DNA of 64,000 bases from Primorskyibacter sedentarius (GTDB lineage Bacteria; Pseudomonadota; Alphaproteobacteria; Rhodobacterales; Rhodobacteraceae), in contig NZ_SLZU01000002.1 in assembly GCF_004342065.1 (NCBI RefSeq), forward strand, positions 124,001-188,000, read 5' to 3'. This document shows positions 7,589 through 17,500 of this stretch, piece by piece. The position numbers and the translations under genes were made by a program. How positions within the stretch are numbered: the first letter of the stretch is position 1; every line of letters begins with the position of its first letter. The notes below the pieces were generated by a model. That model had not been told where the DNA came from and did no database searches. It saw nothing but the letters and a program-made list of their open reading frames with translations.

Positions 7589-8299
7589 TCAGATGGCCCG
7601 TTGGTTCACCCGCCGGGACAGCTCGGCCGCGCTCTCCTTGCGTTCGCTATAGCGGTCCAGAAGGTAGCCGGTCTGATCGCGGGTCAGCAGGGTGAATTTC
7701 ATCAACTCCTCCATCACATCGACCACCCGGTCGTAAAACGGCGATGGCTTCATCCGGCCTGCATCATCGAACTCCAGATACGCCTTGGGCGTGGAGGATT
7801 GGTTGGGGATCGTCAGCAGGCGCATCCAGCGGCCCAGGATGCGCAACTGGTTCACCGCGTTAAAGCTTTGCGACCCGCCACTGACCTGCATGACCGCAAG
7901 CGTCTTGCCTTGCGTGGGCCGCACGGCGCCTACCGACAGGGGGATCCAGTCGATCTGGGTTTTCATGATGCCGGTCATTGCCCCGTGCCGTTCGGGCGAA
8001 CACCAGACCATCCCCTCGGACCAGGTCACAAGCTCGCGCAGCTCCTGCACCTTGGGGTGAGAATCGTCGGCATCATCCGGCAGCGGCAGGCCTGCGGGGT
8101 TGAATGTCCGCGTCTCGGCGCCCAGCCGTGTCAGGATACGCGCCGCCTCTTCCGTCATCAGGCGGCTATAGGACCGATCCCGCAAAGACCCGTAGAGCAA
8201 CAGGATGCGGGCAGGATGAGCAGAGCGGGCAGGGCTTAGCAGCGCGTCCGTATCAATCTCGTGAAAGAGGTCGTCATCAATGTTGGGGGTATCGGTCAT
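7589..8299 (-). CDS. arsH: arsenical resistance flavoprotein ArsH
   Basis: This 236-residue NADPH-dependent FMN protein oxidises trivalent organoarsenicals and reduces quinones in characterised homologues. The FMN-phosphate loop [10 protein letters not shown] begins at residue 36. The ArsH-specific [21 protein letters not shown] block follows, then [21 protein letters not shown]. It is the last gene of the arsR-acr3-arsH operon, 56 bases after acr3. Confidence 0.95.
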
Positions 8300-8355
8300 G
8301 TCTGTGTCCAGTTACGCCAGTTTCTTGTTGCGCCACACTTGGGGGCGCGCGTCCG

Positions 8356-9423
8356 TCATGTCCGGGTCTTCTCAGCCGGAAACCAGTGCTTTGTGCGGTT
8401 GGCGAAGGCGACAAGCGACAGCATTACGGGCACCTCCACCAGCACTCCGACGACCGTTGCCAGTGCCGCGCCAGAGCCCAGCCCGAACAGGCTGATCGCG
8501 ACGGCAACGGCAAGTTCAAAGAAGTTCGACGTGCCGATCAGCGCGCAGGGTGCAGCCACATTGAAAGGGATGCCCCAGGCCCGCGCGGCGCCATAAGCGA
8601 TCATGAAAATCCCGTAGGACTGGATCAGCAGCGGCACGGCGATCAGGGCGATCACCAGCGGACGGTCGAGGATGACCTCTCCCTGAAAGCCGAACAGCAG
8701 AACGACGGTCACAAGAAGCCCGATGATCGAGAAGGGCTGCACCCGTGTCTTGAAGGCGTCAACCGCAGCCTCCCCCCCTTGTCGGACCAGCCTCTTGCGG
8801 GTGAAGAAACCCGCTGTCAGGGGCAGCAGCACGTAGAGGCACACCGACAGCAGAAGCGTGTCCCACGGCACAACAATGTCGGTGACCCCCAGCAGGAAGG
8901 CCACGATAGGCGCGAAGGCGAAGATCATGACGACGTCATTCACGCTGACCTGCACCAGCGTATATGTGGGGTCGCCGCGCGTGAGGTTCGACCAGACGAA
9001 AACCATCGCGGTGCAGGGCGCGGCCCCCAGCAGAATGACCCCCGCCAGATAGGCCTGCGCATCCTCGGGCGGGATCAGGCCCGCAAAGACGTAGTTGAAA
9101 AACACAACGCCCAGCGCGGCCATGGTGAAGGGTTTGATCAGCCAGTTGACCACCAGCGTCACAACGAGGCCCTTGGGCTTGTCCCCGACATGGGACAACG
9201 CCCCGAAATCCACGCCCACCATCATCGGGTAGACCATCGCCCAGATCAGCACGGCAACCGGCAGGTTGACCGAAGCGACCTCCAACGAGGCCAGAAGCGC
9301 AAAGACGCCCGGAAACAGGTTGCCAAGCAACAGACCGGCGCCAATGGCCAGCGCCACCCAGACCGAGAGCCAGCGTTCAAACGTACCAAGGCCGGCCGTT
9401 GCGGGATGAAGTGTATCGGACAT
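8356..9423 (-). CDS. acr3: arsenite efflux permease Acr3
   Basis: This 355-residue inner-membrane carrier of the bile/arsenite/riboflavin transporter superfamily has about ten hydrophobic segments. The conserved transport cysteine is Cys137 in [13 protein letters not shown], and the second motif [13 protein letters not shown] is present. It exports As(III), using the proton gradient. It is 63 bases downstream of arsR and has no partner ATPase. Confidence 0.95.
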
Positions 9424-9486
9424 GTGAGGAATCTCTGGGTTGGGGAACGGTGCGGTAGGGCTTCGGTCGGGGGGCGCCGCCCGTAA

Positions 9487-9840
9487 TCAGGGGCCGTGGG
9501 CCTTGCCCATGCAGCTGCAGGCAATGTCGTCAAGGAAGGGGCGACACATCTCAGGGTTGCCGCCGCAGCAATCCTCCAGCAGGAACGACAAGAGCCCGCC
9601 CATTCCCCGCATATCGGCAAAATAGCGGATACCCCGGCCCTGTCTTTCGTTCCGGACAAGGCCCGCGCGCGCAAGGATTGACAGGTTTGCGGACATGGTG
9701 TTCTGGCGCACGTCGAGCTGCGCGCTGATTTCGCCGGCCATCATGCCTGCATCACCAACCTTGATCAGCAGGCGGATAACGTCCAGCCGGGTGGGTTGAC
9801 TGAGCGCGGCAAAGGCTTCGAGGGCGTCTTTCTTTTCCAT
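9487..9840 (-). CDS. arsR: ArsR-family arsenite-responsive repressor
   Basis: This 117-residue winged-helix repressor has recognition-helix region RQNTMSANLSILARAGLV. The As(III) site is of the C-terminal type: Cys91-Cys92 and Cys98 in EDCCGGNPEMC, a CC-x5-C arrangement like that of Acidithiobacillus ArsR. Two further cysteines (108 and 110) lie near the end. No ribosome-binding site precedes the ATG. The promoter spacing instead predicts transcription starting at or next to the ATG, so the mRNA is probably leaderless. Confidence 0.93.
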   Translation of the reverse strand: MEKKDALEAFAALSQPTRLDVIRLLIKVGDAGMMAGEISAQLDVRQNTMSANLSILARAGLVRNERQGRGIRYFADMRGMGGLLSFLLEDCCGGNPEMCRPFLDDIACSCMGKAHGP

Positions 9841-9854
9841 ATATCATGATTTAT
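9839..9854. promoter_or_regulatory. putative ArsR operator
   Basis: This is a 16-base imperfect palindrome (ATATATCATGATTTAT, 14 of 16 positions symmetrical). It covers the -10 box, the predicted transcription start and part of the arsR start codon. This is where an autoregulating ArsR repressor would be expected to block RNA polymerase. Confidence 0.55.
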
Positions 9855-9876
9855 TGAATTGATTGAGCCGAGTCAA
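9848..9876 (-). promoter_or_regulatory. arsR operon promoter
   Basis: On the minus strand, TTGACT (9876-9871) and TAAATC (9853-9848) are separated by exactly 17 bases. The -10 box ends 7 bases before the arsR ATG. Initiation at the usual distance would therefore begin at or beside the start codon. Confidence 0.6.
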
Positions 9877-9926: not shown

Positions 9927-9943
9927 GTAACCGGACCGGTTAC
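9927..9943. repeat. perfect 8+1+8 inverted repeat at the end of the MEMO-CapA gene
   Basis: GTAACCGG and CCGGTTAC are separated by one base. The repeat touches the last base of the stop codon of the 9943-11601 gene and lies about 50 bases upstream of the ars promoter. It has no U tract. It could be a weak terminator stem or a protein-binding site. Confidence 0.4.
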
Positions 9944-11601
9944 TACTGCCCTGCCCGCAGCATTTCGAAGTAGTTCGACACCGGGATAAGCCGCAGCGCA
10001 ACCGTGCCCTTGGCGAAACGTCGCAGTTCGACCAGCGCGCCCGAGACTTCTCCGGTCTGATCGAAGAACAGGTTCCCCATCGAAAACGCCGCCTGAAGCC
10101 GCCCCCCGCCATGCACCGTCACCGTGGCAGAGGCTTGATGCGTATGCGCCCCGATCACCGCCATCACCCCGCAATCTGCAAGCCTTTCCATTGCGGCGCT
10201 CTCGTCCGGGCCGGGACTGTTCGTGTAATCGGCGCCCCAGTGGGTCAGGATGACAATCGGAAGCTCCGTTTGCAGGTCGCAGACCAGATCGAGTTGGTCA
10301 GGGTGGCGAATGACCGGGTGATCGTAAAAGAACCCTCGCTTGAAGCTGAGAGGCAGCAGTGCCAGGTCTGCGATCTCTTGCAGCTCTCCATGCATCAGCG
10401 GTTTGATACCGGCGGCTGACAGAAGCTCTCCGCTGATCTCCAGCCCCTCCAGACCGAAGTCATGGCCATGGTTGTTGGCGGTATTGGCGGCCGTTGCCCC
10501 GATCCTGCGCAGAATAGGCACTGCCAGCCGCTCCAGCATCAGATGCTGAACGGAATTCGCCCCGGCGGGATGTTCCGGCAATATCACCCCTTCAAGGTTA
10601 ATGATGAAAGCGCCGTCCCCGCGCCGCAAAGCCAGATCCCTGATCGCCGGGCCAAGTCGATCCTCGTGCAGCGTGCCCGTCCAGCCACGCCCAAGAAACA
10701 CGTCGCCACCAAAAACCACGCGGGTCTGATCCGGCCAGTCCAGCCGCGAAAGCGCGCCCGGATCGGGCGCATAGAGCGTGACGATATAGCTGGTCGTTGG
10801 CCCATTCGAACTGCCGGGCACATAGTCATGCGCGTGGCGATGCGCCACCACCATCGGCTTGCCGCCCAGAAGGCCCTGCAACCGCATTTGAAGATATTGC
10901 GACGCCTTGCTGTCCATATGCGCGGGTTGAGCAAGCGAAAGCACCGCCTGCGGATCGTTTGCCGCGATCACGCCAAGCGTTTCGATATCGCGCTGCACGG
11001 CGATGTCGCGCGGCAGGAAATGAGAGTAGTCCGTCGATTGCACGACCAGCACATTGTCCGTCAGCTGGGGGGCGATCAGCGCGATTGCCGCCTCCCATTC
11101 CTTTGGGCGGCTTGCTGTTGCTGTGGTAATGGCCGTCACGGGCACACCGGGAAACAGTGCGGCGATGAAGGGTGCAACCGCATGGATGGCGTGCTCGCGC
11201 GTCGCAGCACCCACGTCAGAAAAGAGGGAGGGTCGCGAGGCCAGCTGTGCTGACAAAGAGCCTGCGGGGACCCGTCCCATCACCGTGTCCAGAGGGGCGC
11301 TCAGCACACCGAACGGCGTCTCAAGGCTGCGGAAATGGTCAGGGCCGATCAGGATGATATGATCAACCTGCTGCCCGCTTGCCACCCGCAATCCCCGCAC
11401 GATCAGATCGGCAGCAAGGATGTGATGTGGCACCGTCACGCCGGTGATGCGCGCGTCAGACACAACCTGCTCTGCCTCCAGCGCGGCAGTAATGAGCCGG
11501 GCATCCCGCGCCGCCGTGATGAAGCGCGACGAGGTCTGCGCCGCCACTGACTGTGACCAGACCAGCAGCAAGACAAGGAAACAAATGCGTGACCGAAACA
11601 T
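9943..11601 (-). CDS. secreted MEMO-like (AmmeMemoRadiSam B) and CapA-like phosphoesterase fusion
   Basis: The 552-residue product starts at the ATG at 11601 and has a signal peptide ending near VAAQ. Residues 45-280 resemble the MEMO/AmmeMemoRadiSam-B fold, with a PHH near 59, IGPDHF near 87 and STDYSHF near 190 as the expected metal-binding positions. Residues 295-545 match the CapA/PgsA metallophosphatase-like family: VVFGGDVFLGRGW, INLEGV, TANNHGHDFG, LTHWGADY and GAHTHQ. CapA proteins act in poly-gamma-glutamate or capsule biology. MEMO proteins bind metal, but their bacterial role is unclear. The substrate is unknown. The gene is divergent from the MORN gene, with 49 bases between the starts. 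Confidence 0.8.
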   Translation of the reverse strand: MFRSRICFLVLLLVWSQSVAAQTSSRFITAARDARLITAALEAEQVVSDARITGVTVPHHILAADLIVRGLRVASGQQVDHIILIGPDHFRSLETPFGVLSAPLDTVMGRVPAGSLSAQLASRPSLFSDVGAATREHAIHAVAPFIAALFPGVPVTAITTATASRPKEWEAAIALIAPQLTDNVLVVQSTDYSHFLPRDIAVQRDIETLGVIAANDPQAVLSLAQPAHMDSKASQYLQMRLQGLLGGKPMVVAHRHAHDYVPGSSNGPTTSYIVTLYAPDPGALSRLDWPDQTRVVFGGDVFLGRGWTGTLHEDRLGPAIRDLALRRGDGAFIINLEGVILPEHPAGANSVQHLMLERLAVPILRRIGATAANTANNHGHDFGLEGLEISGELLSAAGIKPLMHGELQEIADLALLPLSFKRGFFYDHPVIRHPDQLDLVCDLQTELPIVILTHWGADYTNSPGPDESAAMERLADCGVMAVIGAHTHQASATVTVHGGGRLQAAFSMGNLFFDQTGEVSGALVELRRFAKGTVALRLIPVSNYFEMLRAGQ

Positions 11602-11650
11602 CAAAACCCACTAGCGTCGTGCGAGAACTTTGCATGAATACCTATCGCCC

Positions 11651-13387
11651 ATGAAATTTCCTGTCTTCCTCTTTCTCTGGCTTGCCCTTGCGCTGCCCGC
11701 TTCGGCAGAGACCCCTTCGCCCGTTCTGTCGTTGCGCGAAGTCACCGTGCCACAGGATGCCGGCAGGGTCCCGGTGGCCGGTCAGGGTGCCTGGCGCGAT
11801 CACGTGCAACTCGTGTGGTCCCCGTCGGCCAAGACACTGTCGCGCCGCAGCTACCGGATCTTCGATCCTTTCGCCGAGGACGGCTTTGACCTTTTCTGGC
11901 AACCCCGTGATCCCGCTACGGACAAGGCCGGGCCATTGACGGGCGAAGGCATCCTGACATGGCGCCGGAAAGGCAGCTTTCGGCAGTCCGAAGACGGGAT
12001 CGCCGCCCAGTTCATCGGGCATATGCAGGATGGCCGCGCCACGGGGTTTGGCCGTTTCTCCGATGCGTCTGGCCTGCGTTACACGGGCCTGTGGCGGGGC
12101 GGGCTGATGCATGGGGCGGGACAGCTTCAGACGGCACTTGGTGACGCGCTTGTCGGCACGTTTCAGGACGGGCTTCCCGCCGGGCAGGGTCGGCTTGTCG
12201 ATGTCACGGGCGCGACCTATGCGGGCCCCTTTGAAAACGGTGCGCCGCTTCTGGCACAATCAGGGCCGGCCGGGTTGGCCATCGCGTTGAGTGTCGGTGG
12301 GGACAGGGATTTCTGCTGCGGTTTTCGCGGGCCGGACCTTGGCTATGCCAGCCTGTCGGAGCCCGGCAAACTGTCGATCTTTCCGGACGATCCGAGGCTG
12401 ATGGATGCGTGGCGCGGCCGCGCGAACGTGGTCGTTCAGGACCCCGTGGAATTTGACTGGGCCCGCGCGTTGGAGTGGCAATACAGTTTTCTGAACTACC
12501 ACAAGGATCTTCGCACGACTTTGCCGCTGCGCTTTGGCCTTCGCAACACGACGACACAGGGCGCGCAGATTATCGGCGCCTATCTTGATATCGACAGGTC
12601 GCGCATCGATGCCCAACCGATGATGCAGGCCGTAGTGCTGAAGCCGCTCAGCCCGTCCAACACCGATTTCAGCCTGGAGAATTACGGCTGGTCCAGTGCT
12701 ACTGACGTAACCCTGACGGCGCGTTTCGTACGTGGCGACGCCGAAACCCCGTCATTCACGATGTCCCTGCCGGATATTGAGGATATCAATGCGTTTTCCT
12801 TCATCCCCGTCCTGCGCGACTTTGGCGTTGCAACAGACCGCCTGCCAGAGGTCGCGACCGCCTGCGCGGGCCAGTTCGGCCAAGACAGCAACCCGGCGGG
12901 CTGCACGGATCGCATTCGTCAAAGCGGCATTTTCGGCAACCTTGCGCCCTTGCTCACTGAAAATGAAGGTGCCAGCAGCTTTGGCGTGAATTTCAAGGGC
13001 ACGCTGGGCTATGGCTGGCTGGACGCAGATGGCGGCAGGCGGCGGACAGAGGCGCCGTTCGAGGGTCATATCCCACTTGCCGCACTGACCAGCCGGGCCG
13101 AATGCGAGGGTGGCGATTTCGAACCGGTGAACCTTGGCCAGCCTTTCGACATGGAGCTTGCCGCCGATGGCTACCGGATCAACATGCCCGTCTTTGGCGG
13201 CGTGCAAGCGGGCGAGGAGCGCCGCTGGGAAGTGCTTCTGGATGCCGCGAAATCCTCCAACCATGACATGCGGGTGGTGATCCTGCTGGCGGATGGGCGC
13301 GAGGTCGTCTCGCGCGACATCGCCGCCCTGATTTTCAACGCCCGGCGCTACAGCGCCGACATCAGACCGTTTCAGCCAAGATGTTGA
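11651..13387 (+). CDS. secreted MORN-repeat protein, first gene of a three-gene operon
   Basis: The 578-residue product starts at the ATG at 11651, which gives a clear signal peptide (MKFPVFLFLWLALALPASA). About three MORN-like repeats occupy residues 120-198: FIGHMQDGRATGFGRF, YTGLWRGGLMHGAGQL and VGTFQDGLPAGQGRL. The rest, roughly residues 220-570, has beta-rich character and several cysteines (CCGF, CAGQFG, AGC, AEC) but no family I recognise. MORN repeats commonly bind lipids or proteins at membranes. The coding end overlaps the next gene by seven bases. I cannot assign a function. Confidence 0.8.
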   Translation: MKFPVFLFLWLALALPASAETPSPVLSLREVTVPQDAGRVPVAGQGAWRDHVQLVWSPSAKTLSRRSYRIFDPFAEDGFDLFWQPRDPATDKAGPLTGEGILTWRRKGSFRQSEDGIAAQFIGHMQDGRATGFGRFSDASGLRYTGLWRGGLMHGAGQLQTALGDALVGTFQDGLPAGQGRLVDVTGATYAGPFENGAPLLAQSGPAGLAIALSVGGDRDFCCGFRGPDLGYASLSEPGKLSIFPDDPRLMDAWRGRANVVVQDPVEFDWARALEWQYSFLNYHKDLRTTLPLRFGLRNTTTQGAQIIGAYLDIDRSRIDAQPMMQAVVLKPLSPSNTDFSLENYGWSSATDVTLTARFVRGDAETPSFTMSLPDIEDINAFSFIPVLRDFGVATDRLPEVATACAGQFGQDSNPAGCTDRIRQSGIFGNLAPLLTENEGASSFGVNFKGTLGYGWLDADGGRRRTEAPFEGHIPLAALTSRAECEGGDFEPVNLGQPFDMELAADGYRINMPVFGGVQAGEERRWEVLLDAAKSSNHDMRVVILLADGREVVSRDIAALIFNARRYSADIRPFQPRC

Positions 13388-14517
13388 GGGTTTTGGTCCT
13401 CCTGATGGCGCTGGCCACCGCTAGCCAAGCGCAAGAGATGGTGATTGCGCCACACTATGACGGCGCGGGAACATTCCATGCGGGCATGGCGCCGGTAAAG
13501 GTTGGTGAGCTTTGGGGTTTCGTCGACCGCACCGGCAAGATGATCGTCGCGCCGCAATATGCGAATGTCCGCCCCGGTCAGGACGGCGTGCATCTTGTGC
13601 AGGACGAATTCCAGTCTTGGCGCGCATTGGGGCCGAATGTGGAGGATGCCAATTGGGTCTCCTACCGCGATATGATGAGCTACAAGAACGGCTGGGCGAG
13701 CGTTTGGCAGCGTTCGGGGAGCGAGGAGAAATGGTTCCTGATCGACCTGGAAGGCGACCGCACCTCCAGCACGGGTTTTGACCAGATGATCGACTGGGAC
13801 CCGCCCTTCGCGCTCGTTCGCGAGGCGGGGTCACTCTACGTGATCCATGTCGGAGAGTTTGGATATGTCAACGCGGTTGAGGTGCCCGAGTTTTCGGCCT
13901 TTCGGAATGCGACCGGCCTGTCTGGCCTGACGGGCAGGCACTTCATCGCCACGTCACCGCAAGGCCACGCATTGCTGGAGATTCGCTTTGACGATTATCG
14001 TCCTGAACCGATGATAGCGGGCAGCATCTGGGACCAATCAACGCGTCAGGAAGCCCGTTTCAGCCGCCTCTCACCGCCCAGCGAAGGCTACGTCGCCTTG
14101 CAGCGGCAAGACGGCGCGTGGGGGTTCTACCACCTTGCGACCGCGAATTTCGTCTGGATGGGCCGTTTCGAACAGCTGCGCAGCTTCTCCGAAGGCTATG
14201 CGGCGGTGAAATCAAACGGCAAATGGGGGTATATCAACCGCCGCGGCGAAGTGGTGGTGCAGCCGGTCTATGACCGCGCATATGACTTCCATGACGGGTT
14301 TGCGGTCATCCGGCAGGGCGAATTGCGCGGCTTCATGTCAATCGACCCGGATCGCGGCATCACGGAATTCATCGCTCCGCAATATCAGGACGTCTTTCGC
14401 TTTCGCGAAGGGCTGGCACCGGCGAAGGCGGATGGCAAATGGGGCTTTGTCAGCAACGGACAGGCCCCCGCGCCCGAACTGATCCAGTCGGGCGTCCAGA
14501 AACTGGTTCCAAACTGA
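13381..14517 (+). CDS. secreted WG-repeat protein, second gene of the operon
   Basis: The 378-residue product has a short signal peptide (MLRVLVLLMALATASQA). At least four WG beta-repeat units are visible: ELWGFVDRTGKMIVAPQY near residue 45, DGAWGFYHLATANFVW, GKWGYINRRGEVVVQPVY, and GKWGFV near the end. The middle is more divergent. WG repeats are predicted peptide-binding beta modules. The ATG lies inside the end of the MORN gene, and three bases separate its stop from the STAND gene start, so all three are probably one transcript. Confidence 0.85.
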   Translation: MLRVLVLLMALATASQAQEMVIAPHYDGAGTFHAGMAPVKVGELWGFVDRTGKMIVAPQYANVRPGQDGVHLVQDEFQSWRALGPNVEDANWVSYRDMMSYKNGWASVWQRSGSEEKWFLIDLEGDRTSSTGFDQMIDWDPPFALVREAGSLYVIHVGEFGYVNAVEVPEFSAFRNATGLSGLTGRHFIATSPQGHALLEIRFDDYRPEPMIAGSIWDQSTRQEARFSRLSPPSEGYVALQRQDGAWGFYHLATANFVWMGRFEQLRSFSEGYAAVKSNGKWGYINRRGEVVVQPVYDRAYDFHDGFAVIRQGELRGFMSIDPDRGITEFIAPQYQDVFRFREGLAPAKADGKWGFVSNGQAPAPELIQSGVQKLVPN

Positions 14518-14520
14518 TCC

Positions 14521-17500
14521 ATGTCCCGCCGGTATCGCCTGTTCCTGTCCTCCCCCGGTGATGTCGCCACCGAACGCGGGATCGTGGAAGAGGTCGTCCG
14601 GCGGATCAATGACCGGCTGGGCGACGACGGGTTCGACCTCTATCGCTGGGAGGCGGAGCATTACACCGCCGCGTCCACCTTTCAGGACCAGATCCCGCAT
14701 GCCAACGAATCCGATCTGGTCATCTGCATCTTCTGGAAACGGCTGGGCAGCGAGTTGCCAGAGGAATTCGCACGGCCGGACGGGTCGATCCCCACCGGGT
14801 CTGAATACGAATTCGAACAGGCAATCCAGCAAGCCACCTCGTCGGACGATCAACTGCCCGACATCTATGTCTATCGCTCCGAAGAAGAGGTCACCTTCTC
14901 GCAAAAGACGCTGGAGCTGGAAAAGCTGCAATTCGACAAGCTCGAAACGTTCTGGAAGCGCTGGTTCCGCAATGAGCGCGGGCATTTCACCGCCGCCTTC
15001 GACACCTATACAGACGACGCCCAGTTCGAGGCCAAGATAGAGGCCGCGCTGAACGATTGGCTGTCCAAGCGACAGGGAACGGCCGTCTGGACCGAAGGAT
15101 CGCCCTTCCGGGGTCTGCAACCCTTCGAGGCAAAGCATGCCCCGATCTTCTTTGGCCGCCGCCGCGAAACGGCTCGTGCACGCGCCCGGCTGATGGTGCT
15201 GGCACTGGCAGGCCAGCGCTTCTTGCTGATCTCCGGGCCTTCGGGATCTGGCAAATCCTCGCTTGTGCGCGCAGGGCTGATCCCGGCGCTGGCACGCCCC
15301 GGCGCGGGCGATGTGCTGCCAGATCAGCGCCTTCACATTGCAACCTCGCCCGCGCTTCTTTGCCCAGATCCGGACCATGCGCCCGACTGGGCCCTGCCGC
15401 TTGCACGGGTCGTTTTTTCCCATCCCGATTTGGCCAAGGCGCTCAGCGCGGGCGATTTCGCTTCACCAGAGGCGCTGGCCCCCCTTCTGGCGACGGGCGC
15501 GCCCGCTGCGACGCCCCTTGTCGGCGCGCTGAAGAGGATTGGCGACGGTTTGATCCCAGCGCGCCCTGTGGGGCTGGTTCTATTGATCGATCAGCTGGAA
15601 GAGGTCTTTGCCTGGCCCGACCCGGACCCGTTCTTCGCCCTGTTAGATGCCTTGGCACGTTCAGCGCCCGGTGCGGCTGGCATTACCGTCATTGCCACCA
15701 TGCGATCGGAATTCCGGCACCGGCTTCCAGAGATCCCAGCGCTTGCGAAACTTGTGCAGTTCGATGCCGTGCCCGGCCCGGACGATCCCGACCCGGTGCT
15801 GGACATCACTCTGCCTGCCCATGCGGATATTCGCGACATGGTCGAAGGGCCAGCCGCCGCTGCGGGGCTGACCTATGAAGGCCCGGTTGGCGACGTGCCA
15901 GCGCTTGTTTCCCGCATTGAGGCCGAAGCCACCCCCGCCGCCCTGCCTGCCCTGCAATACCTGCTGACCCAGCTGGAACTGCGCAGCACGGACAGTCTGA
16001 TGACGCATGCCGATTTTGACGAGCTGGGCGGCGTGGCGGGCGTGATGGCCCATCAGGGCGAAGAGATCATCGCCCGCGAGGGTGCCGATCACCTGCCCGC
16101 CATCATTCGTGCGCTGGTAAAAAGCGGCACACCGCCCACGGCGCGGCGGGTTGAGACGCAGGTGCTGACCGCAGACCGCGCGATAGCCCGGACCGTGGCG
16201 GCCTTCGTTGACGCGGGCCTGATCGTTTCGGACGGCACGACGCTGCGATTGGCCCATGAAAGCCTGATCACTTCTTGGGATCGCCTGACCCAGATTGTGG
16301 AACGCGAACGCCGCCTGTTCGACGCCCGCGACCGTCTGGCCGCACTGACCCCGCGCTTTGTAGCGGGCGAAATCGGCCCGCTCGAAGGGTTTCTTCTTAG
16401 CGAAGCGCAGGAACTGTCCGACGCCTGGGGGCCCTCCTTGGTCGCAGAGGCGCATCCGAAGCTGCCGGAATTCATCGCAACCTCGATCAAGGCGGCCCGT
16501 AACAAACGCCGACGCAAGGTGGCGGGCTTCGCCTCGCTTGGCTTTGCTGTCGTCGCGGCGGCCATCGGTTTCGGGCTTTATCAGGCGAGCGTGGCGGCCG
16601 AACGCGCACGTATCGTCGCCGCCACCGAACGCCAATATGGGATCGCGCAATCGGAAAGCGCCACGCGCGAAGGCAACCGCGCAGAGGCGCTGGATTTTGC
16701 GCTCTTCGCGCATGAGCGCGGGCCGAATGCAGATACGGCCTCGCTCATCATCGAGAAATCATTACTCCTGTCCTCGCCCGGTCATTTATGGACCCGCACG
16801 GGCGAGTTCGAGGCCGTCACCTGGGACAGCTCTGGCCGTCTGATCGCGGCAACCACGGCGGCAGAGATCGTGACGCTGGGCGAAGATGGTCAATCGACAC
16901 TGGCCCGCATCCCGCAGCTTGACCCGTCCCTTCATCCCGGCACCCAACCCATCAAAAAGATGGCCGCGCTGCCGGACGGTAGCCTCGTCTTCCTGACACG
17001 GGACAGCAAGGCGGCCGTTCTGGACCCAGCGATGCTGACGGGCGATGCGGCGCAGCCTGGCTGGATCAGCCCCGACAATGACGGCACACCGACCGCTCTT
17101 GGCGAGCTGCTTTTCGACACCAGTGCCTCTGCCATTGCGCCCCTTGGGGCGGGGCTGGCTGTCGCTATCAGGAACGACCGCACGAACGCGATCAACCTCA
17201 CCCGCTGCCCCGCGCTGCCACCCGTAGACTGCACGACGATGCGCGCGCCCTTGGGTGGGAACAGAACCCCGATCACCATATCCGGCGAGCTGCTTGTTTC
17301 CGCCACACTTCCCGCCATGCGCTACCTCAATATCGCGGGTCAGGCGCTCGCCGTGGAGCCATCGCAGGTTGATATCTTCGTGGAAATTGATGCTGAAGAA
17401 CCTCTTCCGCGCGCATCAGGCATTGCCGCCAACGACGATCTGGTGACGGTTTTCATGACGCAAGGGCCGCAGGATGCGCTTTCCAGAACGGTGCGGCTGT

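What the first reader, a model, noticed from the sequence alone, without database searches (positions are those of the whole stretch)
9943..11601. Fusion of a MEMO-like domain to a CapA-like phosphoesterase in one secreted protein
I know the AmmeMemoRadiSam B and CapA families mostly as separate proteins. Here both carry their typical metal-binding motifs in one exported chain, divergent (49 bases between starts) from the MORN-WG-STAND operon. It may form part of the same system.
Basis: partly seen in the sequence, partly recalled or inferred. Interest (0 to 1): 0.62.

Follow-up and report, generated by a model that had tools for sequence, protein, structure and literature searches.

The report
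Exported two-metal enzyme with death-signalling neighbours
A rare exported bacterial protein joins two metal-binding enzyme domains, and its relatives are encoded with one constant partner and with caspase- or TIR-type signalling proteins, which suggests an undescribed cell-envelope alarm system whose purpose is still untested.

Summary
Window 9943-11601 (-) encodes one 552-residue chain, exported by its N-terminus, with a Memo/LigB-fold half and a CapA (PGA_cap) half. Pfam, NCBIfam and a confident AlphaFold2 model agree. The CapA site residues checked are invariant in 24 of 24 relatives. The Memo half keeps both histidine ligands, but MEMO1's cysteine ligand is missing in all 24.

The fusion is rare (5 of 394, 1 of 385, 2 of 299 and 14 of 247 genomes in overlapping samples) and linked to its neighbours. 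The C-terminal domain of the MORN partner was found in the same genomes only (14 of 247, 5 of 355). All 24 loci have a WD40 signalling protein: nSTAND1-WD40 in 6 (TIR at the front in 5) or WD40-caspase in 18, where 14 genes overlap the fusion's start by 4 bases.

Best reading: an exported metalloenzyme of a horizontally spread envelope signalling module, probably of the conflict or programmed-death kind. The module is shown by comparison. Substrate, signal and outcome are inferred. New variant of a known kind.

The parts
9943..11601 (-). Memo-CapA fusion protein P0001, 552 aa, predicted exported
10762..11529 (-). Memo/LigB-fold domain, residues 25-280; H59, H89, H137, D191, H194 invariant in 24 of 24; MEMO1 cysteine ligand absent
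9946..10734 (-). CapA/PGA_cap domain (calcineurin-like fold), residues 290-552; D300, N335, E337, N377, H378, D381, H454, H486, H488 invariant in 24 of 24
11602..11650 (.). 49-base divergent intergenic gap between the fusion and the MORN partner
11651..13387 (+). Partner P0002: MORN-repeat protein, 578 aa, signal-peptide-like start
12242..13387 (+). C-terminal beta-rich domain of P0002, found only in the genomes that have the fusion in two samples
13381..14517 (+). P0003: WG-repeat protein (5 repeats), signal-peptide-like start; homologue also in L005
14521..18729 (+). P0004: DUF4062-like N-terminus (weak), nSTAND1 NTPase, hydrophobic helix, WD40 propeller, 1402 aa
16519..16575 (+). Predicted transmembrane helix of P0004 (residues 667-685) between nSTAND1 and WD40, which would place the propeller outside the cytoplasm
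   Evidence: hydropathy only

Best explanation
P0001 is the exported metalloenzyme of a small, horizontally transferred cell-envelope signalling module of Alphaproteobacteria. Shown by comparison, in the 24 members examined: its two domains are fused, an exported-looking MORN/beta-domain partner is encoded in the same genome, and a WD40 protein tied to a signalling or death-type domain lies close by (nSTAND1-WD40 with a TIR or DUF4062-like front and a hydrophobic helix before the propeller, or a WD40-caspase). Inferred: in the periplasm the CapA half (two-metal, YmdB-like residue set) and the Memo half (LigB-like redox metal site) act on one ligand; the MORN partner and the WD40 propeller read the ligand or the enzyme's state; and the propeller switches on the STAND-TIR or caspase output, giving growth arrest or death of the invaded or damaged cell. 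My estimates: fusion 0.98, module membership 0.9, conflict/death role 0.5, both halves catalytic on one pathway 0.35.
For: Both domains found in 24 of 24 members. MORN homologue beside 23 of 24, and on the same contig about 152 kb away in the last, G1093. Same genome sets for fusion and partner: 14 of 247, and the same 5 genomes in the window's family (5 of 394 for the fusion; 5 of 355 for the partner). Distance matrices of fusion and partner correlate at r = 0.948, with 0 of 5000 permutations as high (22 genomes). WD40 signalling protein in 24 of 24 loci: nSTAND1 and WD40 by Pfam in 6 of 6, WD40 in 18 of 18 of the caspase type. 14 of 18 WD40-caspase genes overlap the fusion's start by 4 bases and the other four have an in-frame start within 14 bases. 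Hydrophobic helix between nSTAND1 and WD40 in 6 of 6. Caspase-type His and Cys invariant in 18 of 18 and 15 of 15. Control: 0 of 8 loci of ordinary Memo or CapA genes had P0002, P0003 or P0004 homologues at E 1e-4. The window gene groups with Hyphomicrobiales genes, not with its own family, and a same-genus genome lacks it.
Against: No experiment, no known substrate, and no defence-library match for P0001-P0003. Caspase, STAND, WD40, MORN and WG proteins also serve non-immune roles. The distance correlation partly reflects shared species history. The partner profile used for the co-occurrence test was built from members of these same loci, so a very divergent partner elsewhere could be missed. 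The WG gene is in only 2 of 24 loci, and gene order and orientation vary. Pfam sees the caspase domain in only 15 of 18 and 11 of 15. The Memo half lacks the cysteine ligand of MEMO1, so it may be a binding domain. Signal peptides and topology rest on reading and hydropathy. The window's protein has a long branch.
Confidence: 0.5

Rival explanations
1. An envelope housekeeping or stress module: Memo-CapA processes a cell-wall or capsule component, and the WD40/caspase/STAND proteins monitor envelope damage without any role against invaders.
For: Export-like start, CapA family name, export-like partners, MORN and WG repeats; not seen in phages: no match among 50,697 phage records and no confirmed viral-contig relative.
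Against: Patchy distribution and transfer across families, swapping of output arms between TIR-STAND and caspase, and one copy on a conjugative Rhizobium plasmid next to other TIR and CHAT genes fit conflict systems better.
Confidence: 0.3
2. Peptide modification: the CapA half works like the lasso-peptide epimerase MslH on a secreted peptide, and the module matures or senses a peptide signal.
For: MslH is the best solved match of the C-terminal half (Z about 22, 22-23% identity over about 250 residues; profile match 9.2e-7). Its catalytic D11, H88, D91, H295 and metal ligands E44, N87 have invariant counterparts. A small export-like Cys-containing protein (cl8, three sequences read) recurs in the caspase-type operons.
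Against: The family keeps both histidines of GxHxH, as in two-metal phosphoesterases, where MslH has GHGPH and a single Ca; YmdB-like and 5'-nucleotidase folds also match (Z 14-18). No peptide precursor was identified or searched for.
Confidence: 0.15
3. Chance neighbourhood of a solitary exported redox enzyme.
For: Gene order and orientation differ: divergent in the window, convergent or co-directional elsewhere.
Against: Same genome sets of fusion and partner in two samples, 24 of 24 loci with a WD40 signalling protein, overlapping genes.
Confidence: 0.03

Closest known systems
AmmeMemoRadiSam system protein B (TIGR04336; Memo, PF01875; human MEMO1)
   Same: Fold (Z 25.6-25.9 to MEMO1), TIGR04336 match, two His ligands and second-shell His/Asp residues.
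   Different: Export-like start, fused to CapA instead of AMMECR1, no cysteine ligand, no AMMECR1 match in the window's genome. Ordinary Memo proteins from the same searches were AMMECR1 fusions in 7 of 8 scanned.
CapA / PGA_cap proteins and lasso peptide epimerase MslH (8gq9)
   Same: PGA_cap domain in 24 of 24; MslH is the best structural match of the C-terminal half.
   Different: N-terminal Memo half; keeps GxHxH; linked to signalling genes. No capsule or lasso-peptide gene was identified among the neighbours scanned by Pfam, which are not all neighbours.
NTP-dependent biological conflict systems (STAND, TIR, caspase, trypsin; PMC7159879, passages read)
   Same: nSTAND1, TIR, caspase, trypsin-like, FGE and WD40 domains occur around the fusion.
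   Different: The Memo-CapA enzyme and MORN partner were not found in that paper's main text: 'MORN' 0 hits, 'Memo' 1 hit (Memo-Ammecr1 radical SAM), and the 3 'CapA' hits were the word 'capacity'. Its supplements were not searched.
Prokaryotic metacaspases with WD40 (PMC3501461, passages read)
   Same: WD40 is the most numerous extra domain of bacterial caspases there, and export of some is suggested.
   Different: No Memo-CapA association appears in the passages read.

Membership tests
AmmeMemoRadiSam system protein B / Memo | Memo profile and LigB-like fold | tested here: met
AmmeMemoRadiSam system protein B / Memo | AMMECR1 partner in the same genome or chain | tested here: not met
   PF01871: 0 in own genome (the sister search with PF01875, missed P0001's own divergent domain, so sensitivity is limited); the 24 chains match only PGA_cap and Memo apart from one weak match in one chain. 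Own genome only; other fusion genomes not searched
AmmeMemoRadiSam system protein B / Memo | Two His plus Cys metal ligands (H49, H81, C244 of MEMO1) | tested here: not met
   His kept, Cys position variable, no Cys at 226-233 in 24 (ligands from PMC11081632, passages)
AmmeMemoRadiSam system protein B / Memo | Radical SAM partner | not tested
   no search run
CapA / PGA_cap | PGA_cap profile and calcineurin-like fold with D, E, N-H, H, GxHxH residues | tested here: met
CapA / PGA_cap | Poly-gamma-glutamate capsule genes (capB, capC) alongside | not tested
   not searched; none among the neighbours scanned by Pfam
MslH-type peptide epimerase | Catalytic dyads H88/D91 and H295/D11 and ligands E44, N87 | tested here: met
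   aligned residues invariant in 24 of 24; the H295 stretch aligned only weakly (1.5 bits)
MslH-type peptide epimerase | Single Ca site with H259 and H261 | tested here: inconclusive
   only H454 of HWG is conserved near there, and residue 452 is L/F/M/Y; that region was not aligned by profile
STAND/caspase biological conflict systems | Signalling or death-type domains encoded with variable partners | tested here: met
STAND/caspase biological conflict systems | Protects against phage or kills the cell on trigger | not testable with these tools
   needs experiment
Known defence systems in PADLOC | Model match over most of the protein | tested here: not met
   P0001-P0003 none at E 1; P0004 best is residues 1-183 to PDC-S60; of 9 proteins of relatives, 6 matched TIR, caspase or WD40-region stretches and 3 none

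The most novel reading that the evidence does not exclude
Memo-CapA plus its MORN/beta-domain partner is the constant input arm of an undescribed trans-envelope immune or programmed-death system of Alphaproteobacteria. It senses a periplasmic event with a two-metal enzyme, and its output arm is interchangeable between TIR-STAND inside the cell and caspases (with trypsins) outside the cytoplasm.
Probability: 0.35. Interest if true: 0.82.

Novelty: new variant of a known kind. Interest (0 to 1): 0.6.

Why it matters
Known STAND, TIR and caspase systems are mostly thought to sense inside the cytoplasm (my general knowledge). A constant exported enzyme-plus-partner pair that keeps company with either a membrane-spanning TIR-STAND or an exported WD40-caspase would be a candidate for sensing at the envelope. 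It would give a concrete setting in which to ask what a Memo domain does chemically; [quoted passage not shown]

Tried and rejected
Chance neighbourhood: rejected by matching genome sets. Phage or viral origin: no phage match, no confirmed viral-contig relative. A 2-His-1-Asp triad with D230 in place of MEMO1 C244: attractive because D230 is invariant, but six MAFFT settings and hhalign put C244 against the variable residue 232, so it is left open. Fold of the partner's C-terminal domain: model pLDDT 78.8, only generic beta-sandwich matches (RbmA Z 9.6 over 109 residues; no Foldseek match at E 0.001 or better), so no function is claimed. Empty insertion site: the FMN reductase-SBF-ArsR block at 7589-9863 is conserved in G001 and G007, but no right-hand flank was found in those stretches, so the borders of an island are not set. 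Literature: no paper on a Memo-CapA fusion was seen in the listings of searches; the 2019 LigB/Memo superfamily paper (recalled, Burroughs and others; cited in PMC7159879) is not held, so prior mention there cannot be excluded.

Rows dropped before counts: L006 and L007 (CapA-only partial hits) and the 17 partial hits were not counted as fusions. G1180 (L089) and the plasmid row were not in the 22-genome correlation, and L100 (second partner copy of G1070) was left out of it. L102 and L104 were replaced by the ORFs of L030 and L029 for the same genomes. A first alignment with a wrong frame for L003 was replaced.

Full report
What is there. The ORF at 9943-11601 (-) is a 552-residue protein with a signal-peptide-like start. 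Pfam Memo (2.1e-7, residues 74-221) and PGA_cap (8.7e-23) both exceed their cut-offs, and NCBIfam TIGR04336 matches residues 38-229 at 2.6e-17. An AlphaFold2 model from an alignment of 23 sequences has pLDDT 87.9 and pTM 0.88. VIA-align places residues 24-280 on MEMO1 (Z 25.6-25.9, rmsd 2.9-3.1, 249-251 residues) and residues 290-552 on the lasso peptide epimerase MslH (Z 21.8-22.1, rmsd 3.3-3.4, 22-23% identity). Further matches are LigB-type dioxygenases (about Z 16-19) for the first half, and for the second half YmdB-like phosphatases (Z 17-18), 5'-nucleotidases and Mre11 (Z 14-15). It is therefore a genuine fusion of two metalloenzyme folds.

Metal sites. Across 24 relatives, D300, N335, E337, N377, H378, D381, H454, H486 and H488 of the CapA half are invariant. 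Through, D300, N335, E337, N377, H378, D381 and H488 correspond to MslH D11, N42, E44, N87, H88, D91 and H295 (the last in a weakly aligned stretch). The GxHxH pair resembles two-metal phosphoesterases such as YmdB (recalled), whereas MslH reads GHGPH and binds one Ca (PMC10406935, Discussion section read). In the Memo half, H59, H89, H137, D191 and H194 are invariant and match MEMO1 H49, H81, H131, D189 and H192. MEMO1 binds Fe or Cu through H49, H81 and C244 (PMC11081632, passages read). The C244 position is variable here, and no cysteine lies at residues 226-233 in any of the 24; the nearest invariant candidates are D230 and S231, with H228 in 23 of 24. The third ligand is unresolved.

How rare it is. 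Full-length fusions were found in 5 of 394 genomes of the window's family, 1 of 385 of the class (the window's own), 2 of 299 of the phylum and 14 of 247 of the family of G1013. These samples overlap, and one search used a single sequence while the others used a profile with strict limits. A pattern scan of genome contigs gave 4 full-length relatives and 2 CapA-only ones. One of 72,556 plasmid records has it, a conjugative Rhizobium leguminosarum plasmid where it is annotated amrB; no phage record does and no viral contig relative was confirmed. The 24 members in hand all match both Memo and PGA_cap. Ordinary Memo proteins from the same searches are AMMECR1 fusions in 7 of 8 scanned, and 2 of 2 CapA-type hits scanned are CapA alone.

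The neighbourhood. A homologue of the MORN protein P0002 lies beside 23 of 24 fusions. The exception, G1093, has it on the same contig about 152 kb away. Its C-terminal domain was searched on its own: at E 1e-10 it occurs in the same 14 of 247 genomes as the fusion, and in 5 of 355 genomes of the window's family, the same five that have the fusion in the sample of 394. The profile was built from these loci, so a very divergent partner elsewhere could escape. The plasmid version lacks the MORN repeats but keeps this domain. Pairwise distances of fusion and partner correlate at r = 0.948 over 22 genomes, with none of 5000 permutations reaching it (maximum 0.53); species history contributes to this. 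As a control, 8 loci of ordinary Memo or CapA genes from genomes of the same family had no homologue of P0002, P0003 or P0004 at E 1e-4.

Two output types. In 6 loci (window, L002-L005, plasmid L059) the neighbour is an nSTAND1 protein with WD40 or beta-propeller matches, by Pfam in 6 of 6. The N-terminus is a TIR domain in 5 of these and DUF4062-like in the window (Pfam 0.072, below cut-off; PADLOC PDC-S60 4.5e-12 over residues 1-183). All 6 have a hydrophobic stretch between nSTAND1 and WD40 as their most hydrophobic 19 residues (mean hydropathy 1.77-2.48). In 18 loci the neighbour directly upstream is a WD40-caspase protein: WD40 in 18 of 18 and Peptidase_C14 in 15 of 18 by Pfam, with the His and Cys of the caspase dyad invariant in 18 of 18 (H900 and C951 in the first row; the residue roles are recalled). 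The 6 whose N-termini were read carry a hydrophobic export-like segment near the start. In 14 of these 18 the caspase gene's stop overlaps the fusion's start by 4 bases, and in the other 4 an in-frame start lies within 14 bases. Fifteen of the 18 have a second caspase-like gene (Pfam C14 in 11 of 15, dyad invariant in 15 of 15), and 13 have a trypsin-like gene with TAAHC and GDSGGP invariant in 13 of 13 (Pfam checked in L081). In the three Devosia-type loci (L002-L004) a caspase-FGE protein and an RyR-domain protein lie on the other side of the fusion (Pfam in 3 of 3; homology), so caspases also occur with the STAND type.

History. The tree separates the 18 caspase-linked fusions (99/97) from the 6 STAND-linked ones. 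The window's protein sits with L002-L005 from Hyphomicrobiales (100/99), apart from the four caspase-linked members of its own family. Its branch is long, so its exact place is unsure. The same-genus genome G001 lacks the fusion. In G001 and G007 the adjacent FMN reductase-SBF-ArsR block is conserved but the match stops at about 9848-9863. This fits horizontal acquisition next to that block.

How it probably works. Shown: fusion, conserved sites, constant partner, constant WD40 signalling neighbour. Inferred: all exported parts meet in the periplasm; the two-metal CapA half and the redox-type Memo half act on or bind a common ligand; the partner and the propeller pass the state to a STAND-TIR or caspase output. 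A conflict or programmed-death role is plausible from the company of TIR, STAND, caspase, trypsin and FGE domains; caspase, trypsin, TIR and STAND recur in described conflict systems (PMC7159879, passages read). It has not been shown here. The main rivals are an envelope-maintenance system with the same parts, and a peptide-modifying system built on MslH-like chemistry.

What is known. Searches of the paper library listed no description of a Memo-CapA fusion. A 2025 paper mentions Memo-like domain fusions among proteins retrieved with RiPP recognition elements, a different architecture (PMC12710340, passage read). The LigB/Memo superfamily survey of 2019 is not held, so an earlier mention is possible. 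I rate the finding a new variant of a known kind.

Noticed in passing
window 7589-9840: FMN reductase, SBF-family transporter and ArsR-type regulator (Pfam) form an arsenic-type block on the minus strand next to the fusion; the block is conserved at 77-82% DNA identity in G001 and G007.
   Followed up: partly
window 14521-15069 (residues 1-183 of P0004): The N-terminus of the STAND protein matches PADLOC candidate family PDC-S60 (4.5e-12), although Pfam DUF4062 is below its cut-off.
   Followed up: no
L053 and L073-L085: Recurring order in 14 loci: export-like caspase, small Cys-containing protein (labelled in 11 of 14), a protein related to the DUF4760 membrane protein of L053, WD40-caspase, Memo-CapA, then (13 of 14, not L079) a convergent MORN gene and a trypsin-like gene.
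   Followed up: partly
L076 9654-13383: Two tandem copies of the MORN partner follow the fusion in this locus.
   Followed up: no
L059 13639-14865: The plasmid version of the partner lacks the MORN repeats and keeps only the C-terminal domain, which suggests that domain is the essential part.
   Followed up: partly
L002 6144-9930: Caspase-FGE protein and RyR-domain protein in tandem upstream of the fusion, also in L003 and L004.
   Followed up: partly
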